Assembly (NCBI GenBank): GCA_006247105.1
Contig: CM016927.1
Coordinates: 1,178,001-1,242,000 of the forward strand
Origin: Giardia muris
Lineage: Eukaryota > Fornicata > Diplomonadida > Hexamitidae
Direction of reading: 5' to 3'
DNA: 64,000 bases
The position numbers and the translations under genes are program-made. Shown here piece after piece: positions 26,935 through 37,523 of the stretch (its first letter is position 1; each line of letters opens with the position of its first letter). A model generated the notes under the pieces. That model saw only the letters and a list, made by a program, of their open reading frames with translations, ran no database searches and was not told where the DNA came from.

Positions 26935-28416
26935 TCAGCCGCTGAGGAGAAGAGAGATCGCAAGGCTCGTGAAGGAACCGAAGAAAAGACCGGTGTTCAG
27001 GAACAAAGACATGACGCGGCCGCCATCACCCGCATAAGACATGTGAGGAAGGCAGTCAACAAACCGGACCATCGCCACAGACCCGACGTACCCGTTTGTG
27101 ATGGCGAATATCAGCATGATAATTTGGACGATCACATCCGCCCCTATGACCCCCTTATTGCTGCAATTGCCCGCACTCTCGCAGAAGGGCTTGACTAATG
27201 CCGGGGCAGTCGTCAGCCCGTCAGTGCTCCTCGGAACCGCGAACAAAAGAAAGAGGGGAAGGAAGACGAAGCGGCAACAAGAGAAGATGAGGATCGGGAC
27301 GACCTTAATCCGCGACAGGACTTCGATCTTCGGGATCGCACGCCCGATCCAGTCTCCAACCATGAAGTTGGCCGTGAGTCCAAGGTTCCACCAAGTGAAG
27401 GAACTAGGACTGAGACCCTTATCGTGAAAGGTGTCATTCCCTATCATGTTGCCTCTATAATAGAAGAAGACTCCCGCCATGTTAGTGATCTGAGGGAAGA
27501 GGCTAAGTGTGATGAAGAACACAAGGAAGACGGCGATCCCGGGCACGACGAGGTGGCGTGAGATCTCAACGGTAGTGTACCGCCGTCCCGTCTTCGGGTT
27601 GAGCTCACTTGGATCGACCACTCCCTGCCCAGCAGAAGCATCCTCATGGATATCGTGCTTGAGCTCGGGGAAGCGCTTCATGACGATATTCCAGGCTATA
27701 ATGCAAGAGCCGACGAGGATTCCGGATATGACGAAGTATGCCAGAGTGGCGTACCGAAGGAAATTTCTGTCGTCATAACTATTGCCATTACTACTCTTGA
27801 TGGCCATACCGACTCCCGTAACGATGATGTTGATGAGGACGGCAACGATCCCAGCGACCCCGTTGCCGTTCATGATTGCTTGACACATGTCCCAACTCAG
27901 TCGAGACGCGACCGAGAAGGTCATTGGAAAGGCTACGCCGTTGAAGGCGCCGCAGATAAGAATTAGACAGCCAGTGATACCCATCCTAATCGACCTCACT
28001 CTATCATCCTCAGGGGTTCCTGGATCTCCCCCGTCCTTGATGATGATAGCCACAAGGGGCGTCATTACAAGAGCCACAAGCCAGACTACGAGAGAGACCT
28101 GAACCATGACGTTTGCGTTGAGCTTATGACCGAACTTGAGCATAACCCACATCATCGACCAGTTCCCAACGTTATTGAGGGAGGAGCAGAGGGAGAAATA
28201 GAGGTCTCCCGGGTAAAACGCGAAGACATAATCACCGGGGGTGATGAAGCAATTGAAAGGCATCAGGATGGCGGTTCCCAAAAGTACGAAGATGAAATAC
28301 ATCCCACATCCCAAACGCTTCTGCCCAGTTGCCTCCTTCTCCTGAATCCCCTCATCCAGAGTCCCCACAGTACCGAGTGCTGACGAATCCATTCGCCGAT
28401 CAAGTTCCTGCTCCAT
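26935..28416 (-). CDS. Equilibrative nucleoside transporter (SLC29/ENT family), copy 1
   Basis: 493 residues. A soluble N-terminus of about 35 residues precedes eleven likely membrane segments. The first segment ends in the family mark LLGTAILMPFNCFITPGDY; the CSSLNNVGNWSMMW region and later the GNxxF-like GVVNIxxxG-type helix (VAVLINIIVTGVGM) fit ENTs. A long loop sits between segments 6 and 7 (ELKHDIHEDASAGQG), as in ENTs. It should carry nucleosides or bases across a membrane, essential in a lineage without de novo purine or pyrimidine synthesis. A paralogue lies 1.4 kb upstream on the same strand. Start ATG at 28416, preceded on the coding strand by GTAAGAAATAA. Confidence 0.93.
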   Translation of the reverse strand: MEQELDRRMDSSALGTVGTLDEGIQEKEATGQKRLGCGMYFIFVLLGTAILMPFNCFITPGDYVFAFYPGDLYFSLCSSLNNVGNWSMMWVMLKFGHKLNANVMVQVSLVVWLVALVMTPLVAIIIKDGGDPGTPEDDRVRSIRMGITGCLILICGAFNGVAFPMTFSVASRLSWDMCQAIMNGNGVAGIVAVLINIIVTGVGMAIKSSNGNSYDDRNFLRYATLAYFVISGILVGSCIIAWNIVMKRFPELKHDIHEDASAGQGVVDPSELNPKTGRRYTTVEISRHLVVPGIAVFLVFFITLSLFPQITNMAGVFFYYRGNMIGNDTFHDKGLSPSSFTWWNLGLTANFMVGDWIGRAIPKIEVLSRIKVVPILIFSCCRFVFLPLFLLFAVPRSTDGLTTAPALVKPFCESAGNCSNKGVIGADVIVQIIMLIFAITNGYVGSVAMVRFVDCLPHMSYAGDGGRVMSLFLNTGLFFGSFTSLAISLLLSG

Positions 28417-28573: not shown

Positions 28574-28972
28574 TTAGAGCAGAATCTGAGGGGCCGTCAA
28601 AAGACGAGCGGTGGCTAATCCCGTTGGGGTCATTGCTAGTTGCTCCTGACGCCCTTGAATAAGGGGTAGTTGTCGGCCTCGTTTCTGGACGGAGATGTCC
28701 TCCCCACTTGGTGCAGAGCGAAGACTGCTTCGAATCTGTGGGAGCATCGGCTCACGATAGTACCCATCTTTGGTGAAGGAGGAATACATTGGGGCGAAGT
28801 CCTCGGGAGTTTCCGTGATGTGGACATCATCAAGGAAACTCTTTTGACTGATCTCCTTCATCCGTTCTCGGGAGAACTTACTGTTCCGTGGGTGATAGAC
28901 CTCGGGTGCCGTCCACTTCGGAAAAGGTTGGCGTGGGATTGAGGGTGGACATTCTTCATATCCTTTTGGCAT
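28574..28972 (-). CDS. Small unknown protein, 132 residues
   Basis: It begins MPKGYEECPPSIPRQPFPKW and is rich in Pro, aromatic and charged residues, with no predicted membrane segment. The composition (PRNSKFSRERMKEISQ, FAPMYSSFTKDGYY) resembles small axonemal proteins in general, but I cannot name a family. Support for a real gene: an ATG after an A-rich patch (GGAGAAAATG) and codon use like its neighbours. Its start overlaps the end of the upstream ankyrin gene by 17 bases on the same strand. Confidence 0.65.
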   Translation of the reverse strand: MPKGYEECPPSIPRQPFPKWTAPEVYHPRNSKFSRERMKEISQKSFLDDVHITETPEDFAPMYSSFTKDGYYREPMLPQIRSSLRSAPSGEDISVQKRGRQLPLIQGRQEQLAMTPTGLATARLLTAPQILL

Positions 28973-29783
28973 TTTCTCCTTGTAGAAGCAAACGTTCTAT
29001 CTTCTGAGACGAGGGACGCCGTGTCTCTAAGCCGTACCACACATCCAGCTCTCGTTGTAGCCCAGAAATGACGTCGACAAGCAAGTTATTCTCCTCACGT
29101 AAGCAATTCAGGTCGTCAATGTCCACCAGGTTCCGGGTGATAGGAGCCGGTTCCTCCTTGGCTCTATTATGTCTACAGACGACACCATCGTCTAGCTCAC
29201 CTTCCTCGACACACAAAAGCGAGATTAGCTTCAGAAAGATATCAATTCGCAACGGTTGAGTAAGATAGCCTTTAAGCATATGCCAGAACGCAGTGTGGCC
29301 GTCGCAATCGCGTAGACCCAACTCGTAACTCTCAAGTAGCTGAATAGCCTCGACATTCCCAAGACGAGCAGCAAACATTAAAGCAGTGGAACCGCATGGC
29401 ATTCCATCACAAGGCTTTGTGAGACACATCGTGGCGCATTGAATGAGATGTGGGATGGCTTCTACGAAGCCCATTTGGACTGCGACGATGAGTGCCGAAC
29501 GGCCGAAACAATCACAAATCAATGCCTCTTCTAAGAGAGCTTCAATGCACTTCAGATGTCTATTCTTAATGGAGTACATCAAGGCCGTCCACCCCTGATT
29601 GTCTTGCATCCCCCCCTCAGCCGTCAACAAGAGAGCGACACAGTCAACCTTACCCTCACGTGCCGCATACATCAGGGCTGTCCAACCATCGGCGTCTTGT
29701 CGCATAACGTGCTGAAGGTTCTCCATCACGGCCTTGGAGTCCCCCATGATGGCGGCTCGCATCAATGGCGTATGGGAACTCAT
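28956..29783 (-). CDS. Small ankyrin-repeat protein with C-terminal helix
   Basis: 275 residues. Five ankyrin units with the local family core (DGWTALMYAAREGKVDCVALLL and similar) occupy residues 1-180. The end is charged, with a short coiled-coil-like helix (DLNCLREENNLLVDVISGL). This is the protein 21.1 type known from Giardia. The start is the ATG at 29783; the frame is open 9 bases further to a TTG. It lies between two nucleoside transporter genes, all on the minus strand. Confidence 0.88.
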   Translation of the reverse strand: MSSHTPLMRAAIMGDSKAVMENLQHVMRQDADGWTALMYAAREGKVDCVALLLTAEGGMQDNQGWTALMYSIKNRHLKCIEALLEEALICDCFGRSALIVAVQMGFVEAIPHLIQCATMCLTKPCDGMPCGSTALMFAARLGNVEAIQLLESYELGLRDCDGHTAFWHMLKGYLTQPLRIDIFLKLISLLCVEEGELDDGVVCRHNRAKEEPAPITRNLVDIDDLNCLREENNLLVDVISGLQRELDVWYGLETRRPSSQKIERLLLQGENAKRI

Positions 29784-29795
29784 CCTTTTCAAAGG

Positions 29796-29801
29796 TTCAC
29801 T
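29796..29801 (-). terminator. AGTGAA polyadenylation-type signal
   Basis: AGTGAA lies 26 bases after the stop of the second nucleoside transporter and 12 bases before the start of the ankyrin gene, on the same strand. Confidence 0.55.
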
Positions 29802-29826
29802 TATAATGGTAATAACAGGGCACCCA

Positions 29827-31422
29827 TCAATCGAAGATCAGCTTGAAGGAGAGGGAGAGCATGGCCCCCGCGAAGGTTCCGGTCCCGTAGAAGAGCGACA
29901 TGATCCTCCCTGCCTCTCCGTCATAGGAGCTATCCGGGAGATATTTGCGGTACTTCATCATCGTCACCGACGTGAGATGCCCATTCGATAACCCAAACAG
30001 CGCGATGACGACGTGTAGGAGGATGGAGGGAATCCAGACGAAGGAGGTGTTTTCGTGGGTGTAAAAGTACTCCAATAACATTGGAAACGTGCACTTGGTA
30101 GTATCTGACCAGTCATTGCACACCATGGCTGGAAGGGAGAAGAAAGCGAAGACTGGGATGAAAATGACCCGAATGATCGCAAGTGTCAACACCCCTGGGA
30201 TATCTATTCTTCGACAACAAGCAGAACGCGTTGAGGTACGGCCCAACCAATCGAAGAGTAAGTAATTCGCCATGAAAGCGAGAAGCCACCAGACACTGTA
30301 CGTGGCAGCCCTCGTTTCCACCTCTGTGGTGTTCACCTCCGTTAAAATTCGTGAGAGGATACCGATGAGAGACGGCTCCGCCATCGCTAACATACCTGGG
30401 AAGACGAAGTAGGTGGTCATCAAGCAGACAAAGACCGCCGAGCCCGGTAAGGTCAACATCTTCGAAATCTCTAGGGTAGTATAACGTCGGCTCTTCTGGA
30501 CGAGACTTTCTGTCAACCTGTCACCAATGTAGGAGCGGACGACGTCCGTCTGTACGATCGTATCCTCGAGCTGGATGTCCTTGGAGAGGAAAGGATATTC
30601 ACGCATCAGCCAGATCCATGCGTAAATGCTCGCGCCCATAAGCCCAGCACTCAAGAGGTAGTAGGTGAGGGTTGAGTACTGAAGGAAGTTCGTGGTCTTC
30701 CGTATCGAGAGGAGGTCAATGCTTTTCATATCCAATTTGAGGGCAAAGGACCCAATCATGCTCACAATGATATTGATAACGACCGCCACCAGCCCTGCTA
30801 GACCGCTCCCCAGCATGAAGAGGTAACATTGCCTTGCCCCTAGACGTGAGGCGACAGAGAAGACTAGGGGGAAAGCAATCCCTGAGAAGACCCCACTAGT
30901 CACACTCAGAAGGGAGTTGATAACCAGCCTAATCGTCTTGCGAGAGGCAAGGGTATCAACGTCGTGACGGCTGAGTGGGTCTGGGACTATGAGGGTGATG
31001 AATGGGATGATCACCAATACGCACAGCCATACGATGAAAGAGGTGAGGATCATCACGTAGGAGTTGAGCTTATCCCCATGCTTTAGCATGGCCCAGGCCG
31101 AGCACCAGTTTCCGAACGCATACAACAACGAGCAGATGACAAAGTAGTCGGATGGGTAGAAGAAAGTATAGTAATCGACCGGGACTATGGCACTGTTGAA
31201 GGGGAGGAGGGTGGCTATCCCAAGGAGGAGGATGAAGCCATTCGTCTTCTTCAAATGCTCCGGAAGAATGATCTCATCCTTTTTGATCCCGCCCGACGTC
31301 AGACCTTGTCCTGAGCCGCTTACTCCCGCCGCCTCGTTCTCGAAGGAAATGAGGGTCGTCTGGCGGCAATCAATGTCCTGAGTCACTTGTAAGGAGTCCT
31401 CCGGGACGTTCGACACGCTCAT
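29827..31422 (-). CDS. Equilibrative nucleoside transporter (SLC29/ENT family), copy 2
   Basis: 531 residues, with a longer hydrophilic N-terminus (about 70 residues) than copy 1. The same family marks are present: LLGIATLLPFNSAIVPVDYY, LLYAFGNWCSAWAMLKHGDK and VAVVINIIVSMIG. The transmembrane layout matches copy 1, including the loop before segment 7. The two copies share clear residue-level similarity in the first segments but differ widely elsewhere, so the duplication is old; different substrates are possible. The start ATG at 31422 is directly preceded by an A-run (GAAAAAGAAAA); the frame is open upstream to 31497. Confidence 0.93.
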   Translation of the reverse strand: MSVSNVPEDSLQVTQDIDCRQTTLISFENEAAGVSGSGQGLTSGGIKKDEIILPEHLKKTNGFILLLGIATLLPFNSAIVPVDYYTFFYPSDYFVICSLLYAFGNWCSAWAMLKHGDKLNSYVMILTSFIVWLCVLVIIPFITLIVPDPLSRHDVDTLASRKTIRLVINSLLSVTSGVFSGIAFPLVFSVASRLGARQCYLFMLGSGLAGLVAVVINIIVSMIGSFALKLDMKSIDLLSIRKTTNFLQYSTLTYYLLSAGLMGASIYAWIWLMREYPFLSKDIQLEDTIVQTDVVRSYIGDRLTESLVQKSRRYTTLEISKMLTLPGSAVFVCLMTTYFVFPGMLAMAEPSLIGILSRILTEVNTTEVETRAATYSVWWLLAFMANYLLFDWLGRTSTRSACCRRIDIPGVLTLAIIRVIFIPVFAFFSLPAMVCNDWSDTTKCTFPMLLEYFYTHENTSFVWIPSILLHVVIALFGLSNGHLTSVTMMKYRKYLPDSSYDGEAGRIMSLFYGTGTFAGAMLSLSFKLIFD

Positions 31423-31532
31423 TTTTCTTTTTCCCACCATACAGAACGACACGCTTGTAACGGCCCTCTTGGATTCAATGCTCAACCGGGCCAGCACCTT
31501 TAGTCATCCTCCTCCTCTTAAAACGAACTAAA

Positions 31533-34500
31533 ATGAAAACCCTTCAGGAGACTCTTGATTCTCTCAAGAACGTCTTCGAGACGCACGTAAAAACGGCCTT
31601 GAAGGGGTGGCTGGATGGCCTAGAGACGGGCCAGGACATCAAGATGGTGCCAGCTCTTGCCATTCGCTTGGATTCCTCAGACGATATCAAAGCTGTTTTA
31701 GACGACTTCCAAACTGCTCTGAGAGGCCTCATCCCGGCTTTTTCTACACGCTATACCGCATGGCTGTCCTTCTGGCGGGTGATCTACGAGCATTTGGGCA
31801 ATGTTGCAAGGACGGTCTTCCTATATACGGTGGCTCATCGGAATCCTGATAAGACACAGACCTGTGTTCCAGTCTGGCGCCTTCTGGTCGGTGAAAGGAT
31901 CAGATGTATCCGTATCACCCCACTAGTCTTGTCCCTTGTTCACCTTTTCGTTACTGATCCTTCCTCTATCTCTTCTGGCTTATTCTCATATGTCACTGAC
32001 TGTCTCTTTCAGCACCTCCATGGCACCTCCTTCACCACTCATGAGGCTCTCCACGTGACTCATACGTTCGGGGTGGAAGTGATCAATGGCCAAGCCGGTC
32101 CCATCTCCTCCCACATGGGTGGAATCCCAACAGTTCTTAACAAGTCAACCGCGGATTTGACACGCTACCAGATGGCCCTCGCTAAGGACGATCGTATCAT
32201 GGCAGAACCATCTTTTCTCTACTCCTTGCGTCAAACTTCTCTCTTCTCCGTCGAAGAATTGGACCATCTCTCTTGTGCGATGAGTGGTGCCGCAGTCCAT
32301 CTGAAAGATCTCCGAGATCTTGGAACCCTTCTGAACACTCACTTTGTTGTCACAGAAGGCGCAGCAATGCGTAAGTATGGGCCCGAAAACGCGCCCAGAA
32401 GAGTCCCCCTCGTTCTAGCACACGGTTCTTTTCAGCTCAACGATAATTTTCTTCTCGTTCCTAAAATCGAGTCCTCTCCTGGTTTCATTGCCATGGACCT
32501 TCCTGGGAACTTCCGACTGGAAAGGTGTGACGACTCAACACAGAGTCCCGCCTTGACAGTTGCTAATGTGTTATCCACCTTTGAGAAGAAGTCTCTTCTC
32601 ATGTCCTTACAGCCCTCAGAACAATTGGAAGCCTATGAGCGCCACCTTATCCAACGGAACTCTTGGGAGAGTATGGAGTGTGTCCCTCCGTTCCGTGGAT
32701 GCTCGCAGTTCGTCCTCCCACAGTTCCCAGCAACCCCAATGGTCTGGTTCGCTGGTTTCACCCCCTTCATCATTGTTGCACGGAACGAATTAGAAGAGGA
32801 ACGTATCTTCCGAAGGGAGAACTATCAAAGCGTCGGGAGCATGGTCAGAGCCTTCTTCCGTACTGTCTCTGATATTGGCCAGCATCTCAAAAGGTTTCAG
32901 ACCGTTTATGTCAAGAATCTTGACCATGTCTATAGATTGATTGCAGCCTCCCTTGAGACAAAGCCAGGAAGCGTTATCACATCATCGTCATTGCAAATCA
33001 TTTCTATGGCGGTCCTGATCTTCAGGAAGGGCCAATCTCCACGGAGCGTTTATATAAAGGACCTTTCGCACATCATTCCCGCTCCCTTTGCAGCGTTCCC
33101 GACCATCTTCGGCTTGGAACATACTCCTTTGTCCTTCCCAGAGGCGTTTTATACTCCTCAGGCGCTGGAGAGGCTTTCAAAGGAGGTGCGGCCGTTGATG
33201 CACGAGTATCTTGCGGGTTTTCGGCACAGTATGGAGCTTGAGGTGTCCATGGAACGGGAAGGCTTTCTTTCTCAAGGTCGGGTGCTGGCGCTCGAGTTTG
33301 CACAGCACTGCCTGCGGCGTGAGTGCACGATTCTGAAGGAGAGCTTCCTATCCTTTGAACGCGAATTCGGGCAATTCTTGGAACTAGACATACGAATGGC
33401 TCAAACCCTTCCAGCACTTGCACAGACCTATGCCTTGTCGCGGGGTTGCTTCGAGGGTTGTCGTCGAGTCGCGGGGAGTACGGCTCTCTTTCTTCGGCGA
33501 TGTCTTGTAGGAGGGAGGAAGATGTTCAAGGATAACGAGCCTTTATCTGTTGAAGGAGACATCGTAGAGCTCGACGCTGTGAGCATGTACCCGAGTGCTA
33601 TGATGCGGTTACATACTCTTAAGGGCCTTCCAAAGGTGGTCGACCCGGCCATTCATACGCTCCAGTGGCTATTGGAACGAGATGGGTGTTTCCTCGAGGT
33701 GGAGATCCAGGAAGTTCCTCGTAAGCTTCACTTCCCCATAATCAATAGGATGGAGGGCGGGAAGCGCATCTTCACGAACATTCCAGGAAGGATGTTTGCA
33801 GATAACATCACCTTGGAGGATATCCATTCTTTCCATGAGGTCCCGTATGAGAGCATCCGTGTCCTACGCGGGTACTACTATGACGAGGGTAAGAACTTCT
33901 CCGTTCGCGACGTGATTCGACATCTCTTCGATCGCCGTCAACAGCTTAAGGCCGCTGGGTCGGAATTGGAACGATTCTATAAGCTGCTGATGAACTCCTG
34001 CTACGGAAAGGGGGTTGCGCGGCCAAATACCCTGCAGGTCGAGGTCCTTTCGGAGAATGCTTTACAAACGCGCCTACTCGAGACCGACGGGTTCCTCACG
34101 TGGGAGTCTTTGGGTCCCGAAGACGCTCCAGAAAAGTACATCACAACTACCGCGCGGCCACTCGTCGACCTGAGTTCCTACCCGACGCTCAGCGTTCAAA
34201 TCACGAGCATGGGGCGCCGAATCATGAACGAGGTCTTCATCGTAGCCGAAGACCTTGGAATTCCCATCTATTCCACCGTAACGGACTCCTTCCGAGTGGA
34301 TGCGGCCATGTTGGACAAGCTTTGCGCCGCATACCACGAACGGTATCGACGCCCACTCCTTGGGTCCGAGCCAGGCCAATTCGCTCGAACAAAGGAGAAT
34401 ATAATCCTTCTTCTAGGGATTAGTCCCAGCGCTCACTTCCAGAGGTATCGTGGGACTACAGATGCGGGATCCTTCCATGCTTCTCTTAATGGGATGAGCC

Positions 34501-34607
34501 GGGTTGCAATAGAGGAACTGGCAACACGGCGCATTGGAGATATCAACCCGGTCGTTGATCGTGTGGAAGCTCTATATCGATCGCTTCTGGAAGGTCTACG
34601 TACCTGA
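31533..34607 (+). CDS. Orphan family B DNA polymerase, protein-primed type, altered active sites
   Basis: 1024 residues. The C-terminal half has the family B palm: motif A LDAVSMYPS with Asp681, motif B KLLMNSCYG at 817-825, and motif C as VTDS at 916-919. A GGR motif at 660-662 sits between the exonuclease and polymerase parts, as in protein-primed enzymes of phi29, Polintons and linear plasmids. Motif C keeps its second Asp (918), but the first is Val916. The exonuclease region can be followed, yet its acidic residues look lost: Exo II reads KNLDHVY (about 461) where HN..FD is usual, and Exo III reads HCLRRE. The first 300 residues are unrecognised. No integrase, capsid or terminal-protein gene lies nearby, and codon use resembles the neighbours. 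Start ATG at 31533, preceded by aaaacgaactaaa. An ancient captured, possibly repurposed gene is my inference. Confidence 0.85.
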   Translation: MKTLQETLDSLKNVFETHVKTALKGWLDGLETGQDIKMVPALAIRLDSSDDIKAVLDDFQTALRGLIPAFSTRYTAWLSFWRVIYEHLGNVARTVFLYTVAHRNPDKTQTCVPVWRLLVGERIRCIRITPLVLSLVHLFVTDPSSISSGLFSYVTDCLFQHLHGTSFTTHEALHVTHTFGVEVINGQAGPISSHMGGIPTVLNKSTADLTRYQMALAKDDRIMAEPSFLYSLRQTSLFSVEELDHLSCAMSGAAVHLKDLRDLGTLLNTHFVVTEGAAMRKYGPENAPRRVPLVLAHGSFQLNDNFLLVPKIESSPGFIAMDLPGNFRLERCDDSTQSPALTVANVLSTFEKKSLLMSLQPSEQLEAYERHLIQRNSWESMECVPPFRGCSQFVLPQFPATPMVWFAGFTPFIIVARNELEEERIFRRENYQSVGSMVRAFFRTVSDIGQHLKRFQTVYVKNLDHVYRLIAASLETKPGSVITSSSLQIISMAVLIFRKGQSPRSVYIKDLSHIIPAPFAAFPTIFGLEHTPLSFPEAFYTPQALERLSKEVRPLMHEYLAGFRHSMELEVSMEREGFLSQGRVLALEFAQHCLRRECTILKESFLSFEREFGQFLELDIRMAQTLPALAQTYALSRGCFEGCRRVAGSTALFLRRCLVGGRKMFKDNEPLSVEGDIVELDAVSMYPSAMMRLHTLKGLPKVVDPAIHTLQWLLERDGCFLEVEIQEVPRKLHFPIINRMEGGKRIFTNIPGRMFADNITLEDIHSFHEVPYESIRVLRGYYYDEGKNFSVRDVIRHLFDRRQQLKAAGSELERFYKLLMNSCYGKGVARPNTLQVEVLSENALQTRLLETDGFLTWESLGPEDAPEKYITTTARPLVDLSSYPTLSVQITSMGRRIMNEVFIVAEDLGIPIYSTVTDSFRVDAAMLDKLCAAYHERYRRPLLGSEPGQFARTKENIILLLGISPSAHFQRYRGTTDAGSFHASLNGMSRVAIEELATRRIGDINPVVDRVEALYRSLLEGLRT

Positions 34608-34610
34608 AAC

Positions 34611-37523
34611 CTAGATGTCATTGGTCCGAAGGATGCGGGACTGGGAGTTGCTGTCGGTGAAGTCCTGATCCTGTGCGTACCGGCGAATCAGGAGGCGGAT
34701 CTTCGACTTCTTTGCCTTACTGTTATTAATCGATTTCTCACCCTCGAGGATGGCCAACGTCCCCGAGGAGGCGCCCTCTATTGGAGCCAGAATCCGGATG
34801 CAGCTGATCTGCCCTTCACGGGCGGCCCAGACTAGGGCTGTCCAGCCACCGGACTCGCGATCTGACGGCATGTGCATCATGTTCGCCTCATGACGGGTCA
34901 ATACGTCGACTGCCTGCACGTACCCCAACCGCGCCGCGCACATCAGTGAAGTGAATCCCGCACCATACTTGTAGCTTTGAACCGTCGAGATTCCAGCTTC
35001 CTGCTCGACTAGAAGCTTGACAATATCAATCCGGTTCGCCTCCGTCGCTTTAAATAGCGCGGTACACCCATTGACATCCCGTTTGCAAGCTTCAACGTTC
35101 CGAAGGATGAGGACTATATCGGCATAGCCTCGAGATGCCGCATGCATCAATGCAGTCATCCCGAACTTGTCCTGAATCCCCTTCTCGCGCTCATGTAGGA
35201 GGTAGACCACCTCTGCCTGCCCGCTAATGGCCGCAAGAATCAGGGCCGTGGCGCATGGAACCATGCTTTTCCGCTTCGTTGTAATCCCCGCCTCACGATC
35301 CATAAGCATCCGCACAATGTTAGCGAACCCACGCTTTGCAGCCACCATCATCGCGGTGTATCCGTACGAGTTCTGAAGTCCAGCTTGGTGGAGATGCTCC
35401 TGAACCGCCTTCTGATTATTGGATAACGCCGCAAGGATGAGTTGCGTGTTCCCCTTTTTATCTCGACGAATCGAGTGCAGGTTAGCAAGAGCATCAGCAC
35501 GAGACCACCAACTGATCATTCGACGAGCAGAGGGTGACTCGGGATCGCGCATCCTAGGGGAACGCCGTTGCTGAGAAGGGAGTGTGGGAGACGGCATGAA
35601 CCGTGGGAATGAGCTCATCTCAGTGCTTTGATCGATGGTCTGCTCCTCACGCTGAGGCGTCCGTCGTACTTGTAGGGAAGATGGCCGCCGAGGCTCATCC
35701 TTCTTTTGCGCGGTGAGTAATGTGTTCTCCTCAAGAGTGATGTAAGGGGTAGGTGAAATCCCCTCGATATTGAAGGAGGGTTCTGTATTCAAGGACTGTG
35801 CATGTCCACCACTGGCGGAACGCCTTACGCCTCGGACGTAGATGGGTTTGAAACGAAGCGGGTCTCCAGGCTGCCAATACGAGAATCGATCCCCTTTTCC
35901 ATTGGGTATGACGTTGGAGATCAGAAGGGGAATAAGCTCTCCTCCTTCACGCTCACGACTAGGTGCACGAGCTCCAACCGTTCGTGATCTTGCCTCCGGT
36001 GTGTTCTCGATCGACCCTTTCCATGGCCGGATCTGTCTGTTCAACGACTTCTGAGCACGCGAAGGATATTCAAGCATGGGCTGTGCGGATGCTGCTCGTT
36101 GAGGTTCGGATCGTAAGTTCATTGGCGTTTGGATTGGAGTACGTCCAGGAAGAGGGGGTGGGACTGCAGGGCTGGGGTTGGAAACCTTAACGGTCGTTGT
36201 ATTCAGCTCTTCTGGCCGCTCCGGAGTCTCCGGAGTGAGAAGGTCAATCTTCCCCGGCTCACAGATTCTCGTTTGCGGTGTACAGGCACGAATGGGAACT
36301 GTACTGATCACATGCGAGTGCTGAAGCGGGTGTGGCCGTGGTTGGCCTTGTGGATGATGAAGGGCGATCGGGGACTCATATTCCTCTATGGTGCAGGAAT
36401 TAAGCTGGGAACCCTTGTCATTCGGGCCAGGAAGGCTCTGCATCGACGTGTCCTGGGGTAAAAAAGCATCAACGGCAGGTGGGATATCACAAGTGGTATC
36501 GTGATGGATAGGGCCTTGGGAGGCCAGGCGAACGGCAATTTCAGGAACGTCAAGAAGCCTAGCGACGGTACCTCGTGCCATAGGGTCTGGGTCGACCATC
36601 CTGGTGGCGAAGTCGACCAGGTCCGAACTATACACGTTCTCAAGGTCTGAACGGTAATCCTGGAAGTCGGAGGTTAAAAGGCGACTGAGATCCGTATGTT
36701 TCTGGCAGTATGAACAAGAGAGAGTCATGAGCTCGCAAAGAACCATCCCGAAGGCCCAGAGATCCGATGCCAAATCAAGTTCTGTAGCACCCCCAGTGCG
36801 CATTGAAGAGAGGGCACCACCAAGGACGGTATGATCTCGGGAAAGGAGTGTGTATTGTCCAGCGACGAGTTGCAGCTTATCCGTGCTTCCATAACGTCGG
36901 AAGCACTCCATCAACTCGGGAGAGCAATATATGAGCTCGTCTATCTTCCGCCCAGAGGCATTCCGGACGGGACCGAAGTTACGATAAAGCGCTGGGTGTG
37001 ACAGCTTCGTATCACCGCGCTCGAGAGTGGTCGCATCAGGCCGGTGTGGTACGAATATGTTTGAAGGCTTGATCCCAGCGTGGGCCATCTGCCCTATACG
37101 GATCTCCTGTCCCGTGCTTGGGTTCACGAAGACTTTGTTGTTCTCGGTGTGGAGATAAGCAAGGGCTGCAAGGGTATCTGTGGCAAGGTTCCAGATTGCG
37201 TCCTCCGTGAAGAAGGTTCCCGCGCGCCTATGCTCAACGATTAGTTTGGAGAGGCAAACCTGACCGAATTCTTCGAAGAGGGTGACGGTGTCGTTCTGGA
37301 TGTTGAAACGGGTCCCAAAACAACGCAGAATGTTTGGGTGCGCCAGTTCCGCGAGGTGAGCCGGGTCATTGACGGTGCACAGCTGAAGGCTCTGTCTGAC
37401 CTCTCGTAGGTTGACTATCTTGGCGACGCACATCCCCGCAACGCCCGTCGCCGTGCCGAGCAGGACGATGGCGTGCCGCCGTCGGGCGAGGACTGTGGAA
37501 GAGCGAAAATCGCCCCCGCTCAT
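34611..37523 (-). CDS. NEK-type pseudokinase with C-terminal ankyrin repeats, second copy
   Basis: 970 residues. The kinase-like domain spans about residues 10-330. The VAIK lysine is kept (VAK, Lys35), and the catalytic loop keeps Lys152 and Asn155, but HRD is HAG (148-150) and DFG is NFG (182-184), so the base and the metal-binding Asp are missing. SPE replaces APE. Residues 330-670 are Pro/Ser/Thr/Arg-rich and probably disordered. Six or seven ankyrin units follow from about 680 (GYTAMMVAAKRGFANIVRML and similar). Unlike the first NEK in this window it could still bind ATP. Start ATG at 37523, after an A-run (GGAAAAAAGC). The 3' end is 3 bp from the convergent polymerase gene. Confidence 0.9.
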   Translation of the reverse strand: MSGGDFRSSTVLARRRHAIVLLGTATGVAGMCVAKIVNLREVRQSLQLCTVNDPAHLAELAHPNILRCFGTRFNIQNDTVTLFEEFGQVCLSKLIVEHRRAGTFFTEDAIWNLATDTLAALAYLHTENNKVFVNPSTGQEIRIGQMAHAGIKPSNIFVPHRPDATTLERGDTKLSHPALYRNFGPVRNASGRKIDELIYCSPELMECFRRYGSTDKLQLVAGQYTLLSRDHTVLGGALSSMRTGGATELDLASDLWAFGMVLCELMTLSCSYCQKHTDLSRLLTSDFQDYRSDLENVYSSDLVDFATRMVDPDPMARGTVARLLDVPEIAVRLASQGPIHHDTTCDIPPAVDAFLPQDTSMQSLPGPNDKGSQLNSCTIEEYESPIALHHPQGQPRPHPLQHSHVISTVPIRACTPQTRICEPGKIDLLTPETPERPEELNTTTVKVSNPSPAVPPPLPGRTPIQTPMNLRSEPQRAASAQPMLEYPSRAQKSLNRQIRPWKGSIENTPEARSRTVGARAPSREREGGELIPLLISNVIPNGKGDRFSYWQPGDPLRFKPIYVRGVRRSASGGHAQSLNTEPSFNIEGISPTPYITLEENTLLTAQKKDEPRRPSSLQVRRTPQREEQTIDQSTEMSSFPRFMPSPTLPSQQRRSPRMRDPESPSARRMISWWSRADALANLHSIRRDKKGNTQLILAALSNNQKAVQEHLHQAGLQNSYGYTAMMVAAKRGFANIVRMLMDREAGITTKRKSMVPCATALILAAISGQAEVVYLLHEREKGIQDKFGMTALMHAASRGYADIVLILRNVEACKRDVNGCTALFKATEANRIDIVKLLVEQEAGISTVQSYKYGAGFTSLMCAARLGYVQAVDVLTRHEANMMHMPSDRESGGWTALVWAAREGQISCIRILAPIEGASSGTLAILEGEKSINNSKAKKSKIRLLIRRYAQDQDFTDSNSQSRILRTNDI

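What the first reader, a model, noticed from the sequence alone, without database searches (positions are those of the whole stretch)
31533..34607. A lone protein-primed-type DNA polymerase gene in a compact diplomonad genome
Seen: motif A (Asp681), motif B (817-825), a TDS motif C and the GGR linker motif that separates protein-primed family B polymerases from the replicative ones. Known: this class belongs to Polinton/Maverick transposons, linear plasmids and phi29-like or adenovirus-like viruses, all of which also need a terminal protein, and Polintons an integrase and capsid genes. None of these lies in the 31 kb on either side; the flanks are a nucleoside transporter and a NEK pseudokinase in normal tight packing, and codon use looks local. 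Inference: an old capture of an element's polymerase, kept long enough to blend in. With no organellar DNA known in this lineage, its substrate is unclear.
Basis: partly seen in the sequence, partly recalled or inferred. Interest (0 to 1): 0.88.

Follow-up and report, generated by a model that had tools for sequence, protein, structure and literature searches.

The report
Repurposed viral DNA polymerase in Giardia
A genome that looks like the mouse parasite Giardia muris carries one gene that appears to have begun as the DNA-copying enzyme of a small virus; it and a related parasite have lost the same key catalytic parts but kept the gene intact, which suggests that the cell has put it to a new use.

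The parts
31520..31532 (+). A-rich stretch directly before the start codon (9 A of 13), like the enrichment the G. muris paper reports for host genes
   Evidence: sequence; PMC7641422 section 8
31533..34607 (+). ORF of 1024 aa, polinton-type protein-primed DNA polymerase homologue
31533..32111 (+). Residues 1-193, at the position of the terminal-protein domain; fold not established (much of it pLDDT under 50)
   Evidence: model; domain order from PMC11071308
32142..32492 (+). vOTU-like domain, about residues 204-320 (boundaries approximate)
   Evidence: separate model and fold matches
32211..32213 (+). vOTU catalytic Cys position, now Ser227
32427..32429 (+). vOTU catalytic His position, now Ser299
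32754..32762 (+). Exo I: Asp408 is Gly and Glu410 is Thr
32916..32930 (+). Exo II: Asn462 kept, Asp466 is Val
33309..33323 (+). Exo III: Tyr593 is Cys and Asp597 is Glu
33510..33518 (+). GGR motif 660-662, kept
33573..33602 (+). Motif A 681-690 with Asp681, Ser684, Tyr686, kept
33981..34010 (+). Motif B 817-826 with Lys817, Asn821, Tyr824, Gly825, kept
34272..34289 (+). Motif C 914-919: Tyr914 is Ser, first Asp916 is Val, Asp918 and Ser919 kept
34425..34436 (+). KxY region 965-968: Lys965 is Pro, Lys966 is Ser, Tyr968 is His
29827..31497 (-). Neighbouring nucleoside transporter ORF; an 82%-identical protein comes from a contig of the same length as the second polymerase copy
34611..37523 (-). 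Convergent neighbour, protein kinase and ankyrin domains

Best explanation
The gene for the fused replication protein (terminal protein-vOTU-exonuclease-palm) of a polinton-like virus was captured into a chromosome of an ancestor of G. muris and of the organism behind P0002, and was remodelled before they split. Self-cleavage (vOTU), proofreading (exonuclease) and primer-terminus gripping (KxY; this role is recalled from phi29 work) were lost and the metal site was altered (first Asp of motif C to Val), while the nucleotide pocket (Asp681, Ser684, Tyr686, Lys817, Asn821, Tyr824, Gly825, Asp918; roles recalled) was kept. Shown: family, losses, their sharing, and purifying selection since. Inferred: direction of transfer, nuclear site, and the work done, which I take to be slow, proofreading-free DNA synthesis on odd substrates such as gapped or damaged DNA, in the manner of Sulfolobus Dpo2. 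Capture and exaptation: about 0.85. Polymerase mechanism: about 0.4, which is the confidence given.
For: Class: Pfam and fold. Losses shared by both copies and absent from 24 of 24 full-length relatives. Selection: 770 of 1024 residues identical, one gap column, no stop; 600 neutral simulations gave 2 or more stops each. Stem branch 1.65 against tips of 0.083 and 0.12. Palm keeps 41 of 55 conserved columns against 1 of 14 in the dead exonuclease, Fisher p 5.6e-6, so the palm is not released as the exonuclease was. Dpo2 lacks an exonuclease and the first Asp of motif C, was predicted inactive, yet is a damage-inducible bypass polymerase (PMC7390963, passages).
Against: KxY and Tyr914 are lost as well, and 1 of 8 conserved columns after residue 960 is kept in both. 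Retention of the 8 nucleotide/metal residues is not clearly beyond the palm average (p 0.08; 0.27 if Asp916 is counted among them). The genome has two Y-family polymerase matches, so there is no bypass vacancy to fill. No activity or expression data.
Confidence: 0.4

Rival explanations
1. Non-catalytic pseudo-polymerase: the protein keeps the fold and binds DNA, nucleotides or viral partners without making DNA, for instance as a decoy that blocks replication of related viruses, or as a structural factor, much as poxvirus F12 is an inactivated polymerase used in virion morphogenesis.
For: Loss in three functional sites at once, plus Tyr914, Asp916 and KxY in the palm; dead exonuclease domain still 80% identical between the two copies, so it is kept for its fold; F12 precedent (PMC4304020, part 1 of 3); relatives sit on virus-like contigs.
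Against: Asp681, Asp918 and the motif B residues are intact in both copies; palm columns are kept far better than exonuclease columns. No related virus of Giardia turned up here.
Confidence: 0.38
2. Decaying relic: a viral insertion on its way to a pseudogene that happens to be still open.
For: Many catalytic residues are lost and the stem branch is long.
Against: Two copies at 75% identity with one gap column and no stop; neutral simulations (200 at each of three transition biases) gave 10 to 12 stops on average and never under 2, and mean BLOSUM62 of differences at most -0.28 against +0.19 observed.
Confidence: 0.06
3. Polymerase of a living element (polinton, linear plasmid or virus) integrated here.
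For: Family and nearest relatives.
Against: Single copy, no rve integrase match in the genome, no flanking inverted repeats at the lengths searched, host neighbours, and lost catalytic residues. Capsid and ATPase searches with L003 proteins were empty but had no positive control.
Confidence: 0.04
4. Contamination or assembly error.
For: DNA came from cysts purified from mouse faeces (PMC7641422); nothing else found.
Against: The gene lies in a 1,296,710-bp contig, matching the 1.297-Mb chromosome contig of the paper, among genes of cellular families with local codon use; a second source holds the gene, and the neighbour, on contigs of one length.
Confidence: 0.01

Closest known systems
Polinton / polinton-like virus pPolB (Preplasmiviricota)
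   Same: Pfam family, domain order vOTU-exonuclease-palm, fold, and closest sequence relatives on virus-like contigs (PMC11071308 passages)
   Different: vOTU, exonuclease, first motif C Asp and KxY residues lost; single host-embedded gene without integrase or repeats found; terminal-protein fold not shown
Sulfolobus Dpo2 (archaeal PolB2)
   Same: First Asp of motif C substituted; no working exonuclease expected; once predicted inactive (PMC7390963, passages)
   Different: Dpo2 lacks the exonuclease domain altogether and has 555 aa; it is archaeal and was shown genetically to bypass damage; nothing of the kind is known for the Giardia gene
Chordopoxvirus F12, an inactivated pPolB-like polymerase
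   Same: Inactivated relative of protein-primed polymerases kept for another role; a turkeypox 'virion release protein' is in the viral fold list (rank 42; that this is an F12 homologue is my inference)
   Different: F12 is a viral gene, most conserved palm catalytic residues are replaced and exonuclease motifs are better kept (PMC4304020): the reverse of the pattern here
Entamoeba histolytica polinton-derived pPolBs
   Same: Polinton-type polymerase genes in a parasitic protist (PMC3511435, passages)
   Different: Four genes, catalytic residues conserved, one shown active in vitro
Tritrichomonas sp. LL5 DNA_pol_B_2 protein (PMC7446861)
   Same: Same Pfam family in a gut protist; the legend of its S4 Fig names a 'Giardia sp.' homologue
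   Different: Catalytic state not discussed in the passages seen; the figure and its accessions were not seen

Membership tests
Protein-primed family B polymerase (by descent) | DNA_pol_B_2 profile match over the curated cut-off | tested here: met
   57.2 bits against 25.8
Protein-primed family B polymerase (by descent) | phi29-type fold rather than RNA-primed family B | tested here: met
Protein-primed family B polymerase (by descent) | TPR1 and TPR2 insertions | tested here: inconclusive
   The model aligns along phi29 polymerase, but the insertions were not examined and residues 821-880 have pLDDT 44-57
Working protein-primed DNA polymerase | Motif A Asp, motif B, motif C DTD, KxY | tested here: not met
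   Motif A, motif B and second motif C Asp kept; first motif C Asp and KxY lost in both copies
Working protein-primed DNA polymerase | 3'-5' exonuclease motifs | tested here: not met
   All four carboxylates replaced in both copies, Glu for the last
Polinton-type pPolB domain layout | vOTU domain with catalytic Cys and His | tested here: not met
Polinton-type pPolB domain layout | N-terminal terminal-protein domain | tested here: inconclusive
   Residues 1-193 mostly modelled with pLDDT under 50
Polinton / Maverick element | rve integrase in the genome | tested here: not met
   No match; control genomes rang in 7 of 14
Polinton / Maverick element | Capsid and packaging ATPase genes | tested here: inconclusive
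   Empty genome searches with L003 proteins, no positive control; none among 23 window ORFs by Pfam
Polinton / Maverick element | Terminal inverted repeats | tested here: not met
   None of 20 bp or more in 29700-36000 or 40 bp or more in 20000-46000
Dpo2-like bypass polymerase (works like) | First motif C Asp replaced and no proofreading residues | tested here: met
   Dpo2 facts from PMC7390963 passages
Dpo2-like bypass polymerase (works like) | Damage-inducible, mutagenic bypass activity | not testable with these tools
   Needs expression and activity data

The most novel reading that the evidence does not exclude
A eukaryotic cell has domesticated a whole viral protein-primed polymerase as a conserved host protein with a protease-dead, proofreading-dead and rebuilt VTD active site: either a new kind of cellular gap or translesion polymerase, convergent with archaeal Dpo2, or a host-encoded dominant-negative shield against the viruses it came from.
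Probability: 0.5. Interest if true: 0.82.

Novelty: new variant of a known kind. Interest (0 to 1): 0.68.

Why it matters
Exaptation of transposon integrases and of viral capsid or envelope genes is familiar (recalled). A captured protein-primed polymerase kept as a conserved host gene after loss of its catalytic residues was not met in the literature searches made here (listings). It gives a concrete test of whether a family B site with VTD for DTD can still make DNA, the question that archaeal Dpo2 raised, and it records an old meeting of the Giardia lineage with polinton-like viruses.

Tried and rejected
Contamination or assembly error: rejected (contig size, neighbours, second source). Other family B classes: rejected by fold and profile. 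Decaying pseudogene: disfavoured by the comparison with P0002 and the simulations. Living element: no integrase, repeats or second copy found.

Searches that led nowhere: plasmid collection, no match. Phage collection, 67 records at E up to 1, the 20 listed being PRD1-type at E 0.03 or worse. P0003 in the phage collection, no match. Viral-contig scans with P0017 and P0003 alone, no relative. The profile search with A1 returned only P0001 and P0002, not even the other 16 rows of A1, so it is no measure of the family's size. NCBIfam, nothing over its cut-offs. Sequence search of solved structures, one chance match. L021 encodes a 583-aa polymerase on a phage-like contig and was not used. L012 and L018 are partial and were left out of the residue table and the tree. 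L022 was found after both and is not among the 24; its protein, printed, has CLIRA, HYF, DFET, DTDS and GKK.

Control that failed: to learn whether G. intestinalis is in the protein collection, I searched the neighbouring transporter (E up to 1e-10). It returned only the window's own copy and P0020. So the lack of a recognisable G. intestinalis polymerase says nothing. That P0002 and P0020 lie on one contig is inferred from equal contig length (6902) and source (lgn), not seen. The organism behind P0002 is unnamed; 'Giardia-like' is inferred from its identity to the window.

Against expectation: retention of the nucleotide pocket is not clearly beyond the palm average (p 0.08, or 0.27 with Asp916 counted), and the genome has two Y-family matches. 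The simulations are simple: substitutions only, one lineage, no indels.

Papers. PMC7641422: abstract, passages, sections 6 and 8. PMC4304020: part 1 of 3 of the text. PMC11071308, PMC12721341, PMC3511435, PMC8516963, PMC7390963, PMC7446861, PMC4409740: passages. Others: search listings only. In the listings I saw no paper on the catalytic state of this gene; a Giardia homologue is named in a figure legend of PMC7446861. No supplement was opened.

Full report
What is there. The ORF at 31533-34607 (+) has 1024 codons from an ATG, with an A-rich stretch directly in front, as the G. muris paper reports for host genes (PMC7641422 section 8). The window lies at C3:1178001-1242000 of a 9.74-Mb, 52-contig genome. 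The protein's contig is 1,296,710 bp, which fits the 1.297-Mb chromosome contig of G. muris, a genome of 9.8 Mb and 54.7% GC. The species name is inferred, not given. The neighbours are a divergent nucleoside transporter and a convergent kinase/ankyrin protein. Pfam on 23 window ORFs, this one included, gives cellular families or nothing.

Relatives. The protein search gave 17 other proteins: P0002 at 75% and 16 at about 20-33%, depending on the alignment. A scan of prokaryote genome contigs gave nine MAG contigs and viral contigs gave L003 and L022. Those whose DNA I saw are short contigs; L010 has a packaging-type ATPase over the Pox_A32 cut-off (24.7 against 22.8). The contigs behind P0003-P0018 were not seen.

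Catalytic losses. In a joint alignment of the pair, 24 full-length relatives (P0003-P0018, L003, L010, L011, L013-L017) and one PRD1-type phage polymerase, all 24 relatives keep the vOTU Cys and His, Exo I Asp and Glu, Exo II Asn and Asp, Exo III Tyr and Asp, motif C Tyr and both Asp, and the Lys and Tyr of KxY. At these places the window protein has Ser, Ser; Gly, Thr; Asn, Val; Cys, Glu; Ser, Val, Asp; Ser, His. P0002 is the same except Ser for Gly in Exo I and Asp for the Exo II Asn. Both keep GG of GGR, Asp681, Ser684, Tyr686, Lys817, Asn821, Tyr824, Gly825, Asp918 and Ser919. P0002 comes from another source at 75% identity, so shared losses are not sequencing errors.

Timing and selection. 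Of columns conserved in 23 or more of the 24 relatives, both copies keep 0 of 2 in 201-320, 0 of 2 in 321-399, 1 of 14 in 400-600, 41 of 55 in 601-960 and 1 of 8 in 961-1024; four of these columns are lost in one copy only. The tree (27 rows, 601 columns, LG+C20+F+G4) joins the pair at 100/100 and sets it beside P0003-P0005 at 100/96, with a stem of 1.65 and tips of 0.083 and 0.12. It flags unusual composition for both rows and five others' length or make-up, so the exact sister is less sure than the support suggests. Change was concentrated before the split. Since then 770 of 1024 residues are identical with one gap column and no stop. Neutral simulations to the same identity (200 runs at each of three transition biases) gave means of 10.1 to 11.8 stops, never under 2, and mean BLOSUM62 of differences at most -0.28 against +0.19 observed. 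Identity is 66% in 1-205, 61% in 206-370, 80% in 371-600, 84% in 601-780, 88% in 781-830, 83% in 831-950 and 72% in 951-1024. The neighbouring transporter is 82% identical in P0020, from a contig of the same length, 6902.

Mechanism. The exonuclease shows what a released active site looks like in this protein: the domain is kept at 80% identity, its catalytic residues are gone. The palm differs (41 of 55 against 1 of 14, Fisher p 5.6e-6), so something still needs palm residues. One reading is residual DNA synthesis. Sulfolobus Dpo2 has no exonuclease and a substituted first Asp in motif C; it was called inactive, yet genetics shows a damage-inducible bypass polymerase (PMC7390963, passages). 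The other reading is a pseudo-polymerase that binds DNA, nucleotides or viral partners; poxvirus F12 is a precedent for an inactivated polymerase with a new role (PMC4304020). Loss of KxY and Tyr914 favours the second. The intact metal and nucleotide residues favour the first, though their retention is not clearly beyond the palm average (p 0.08, or 0.27 with Asp916 counted), and two Y-family matches leave no vacancy for bypass. I lean to the first at 0.40 against 0.38, which is close to even.

Known or new. A 'Giardia sp.' member of this family is named in a 2020 figure legend (PMC7446861). The word polymerase does not occur in the main text of the G. muris genome paper. In the searches named I saw no account of its catalytic state (listings); subscription papers and supplements were out of reach. 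Inactivated or exapted family B polymerases are known; a whole polinton-type one kept as a host gene in this state is a new variant. Whether G. intestinalis has it is untested, because the control could not show that species in the collection.

Noticed in passing
L010-L018; L011 and L022: Contigs filed in MAGs of bacteria or archaea carry polinton-type polymerases and look like misbinned virus contigs. L011 and L022 share gene order: two proteins of about 460-495 aa, one of 983-1231 aa, a 275-279 aa protein, the polymerase and a 137-aa protein.
   Followed up: partly
window 26935-28416 and 29827-31497, minus strand: Two nucleoside-transporter genes (Pfam Nucleoside_tran) lie near each other with an ankyrin ORF (28956-29792) between them.
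   Followed up: no
BFVD list for the window protein (rank 42): A turkeypox 'virion release protein' appears among the fold matches (E 3.1e-8), in line with the published reading of poxvirus F12 as an inactivated polymerase if it is an F12 homologue.
   Followed up: no
PMC7446861, legend of S4 Fig: A tree of a Tritrichomonas DNA_pol_B_2 protein includes a 'Giardia sp.' homologue, Trichomonas vaginalis, Entamoeba invadens and oomycetes (written 'oocytes'); the accession was not seen.
   Followed up: no
window 29827-31497, minus strand: The ORF caller starts the transporter at a GTG (31497); P0019 is 531 aa, which would put the start at an ATG at 31422.
   Followed up: no
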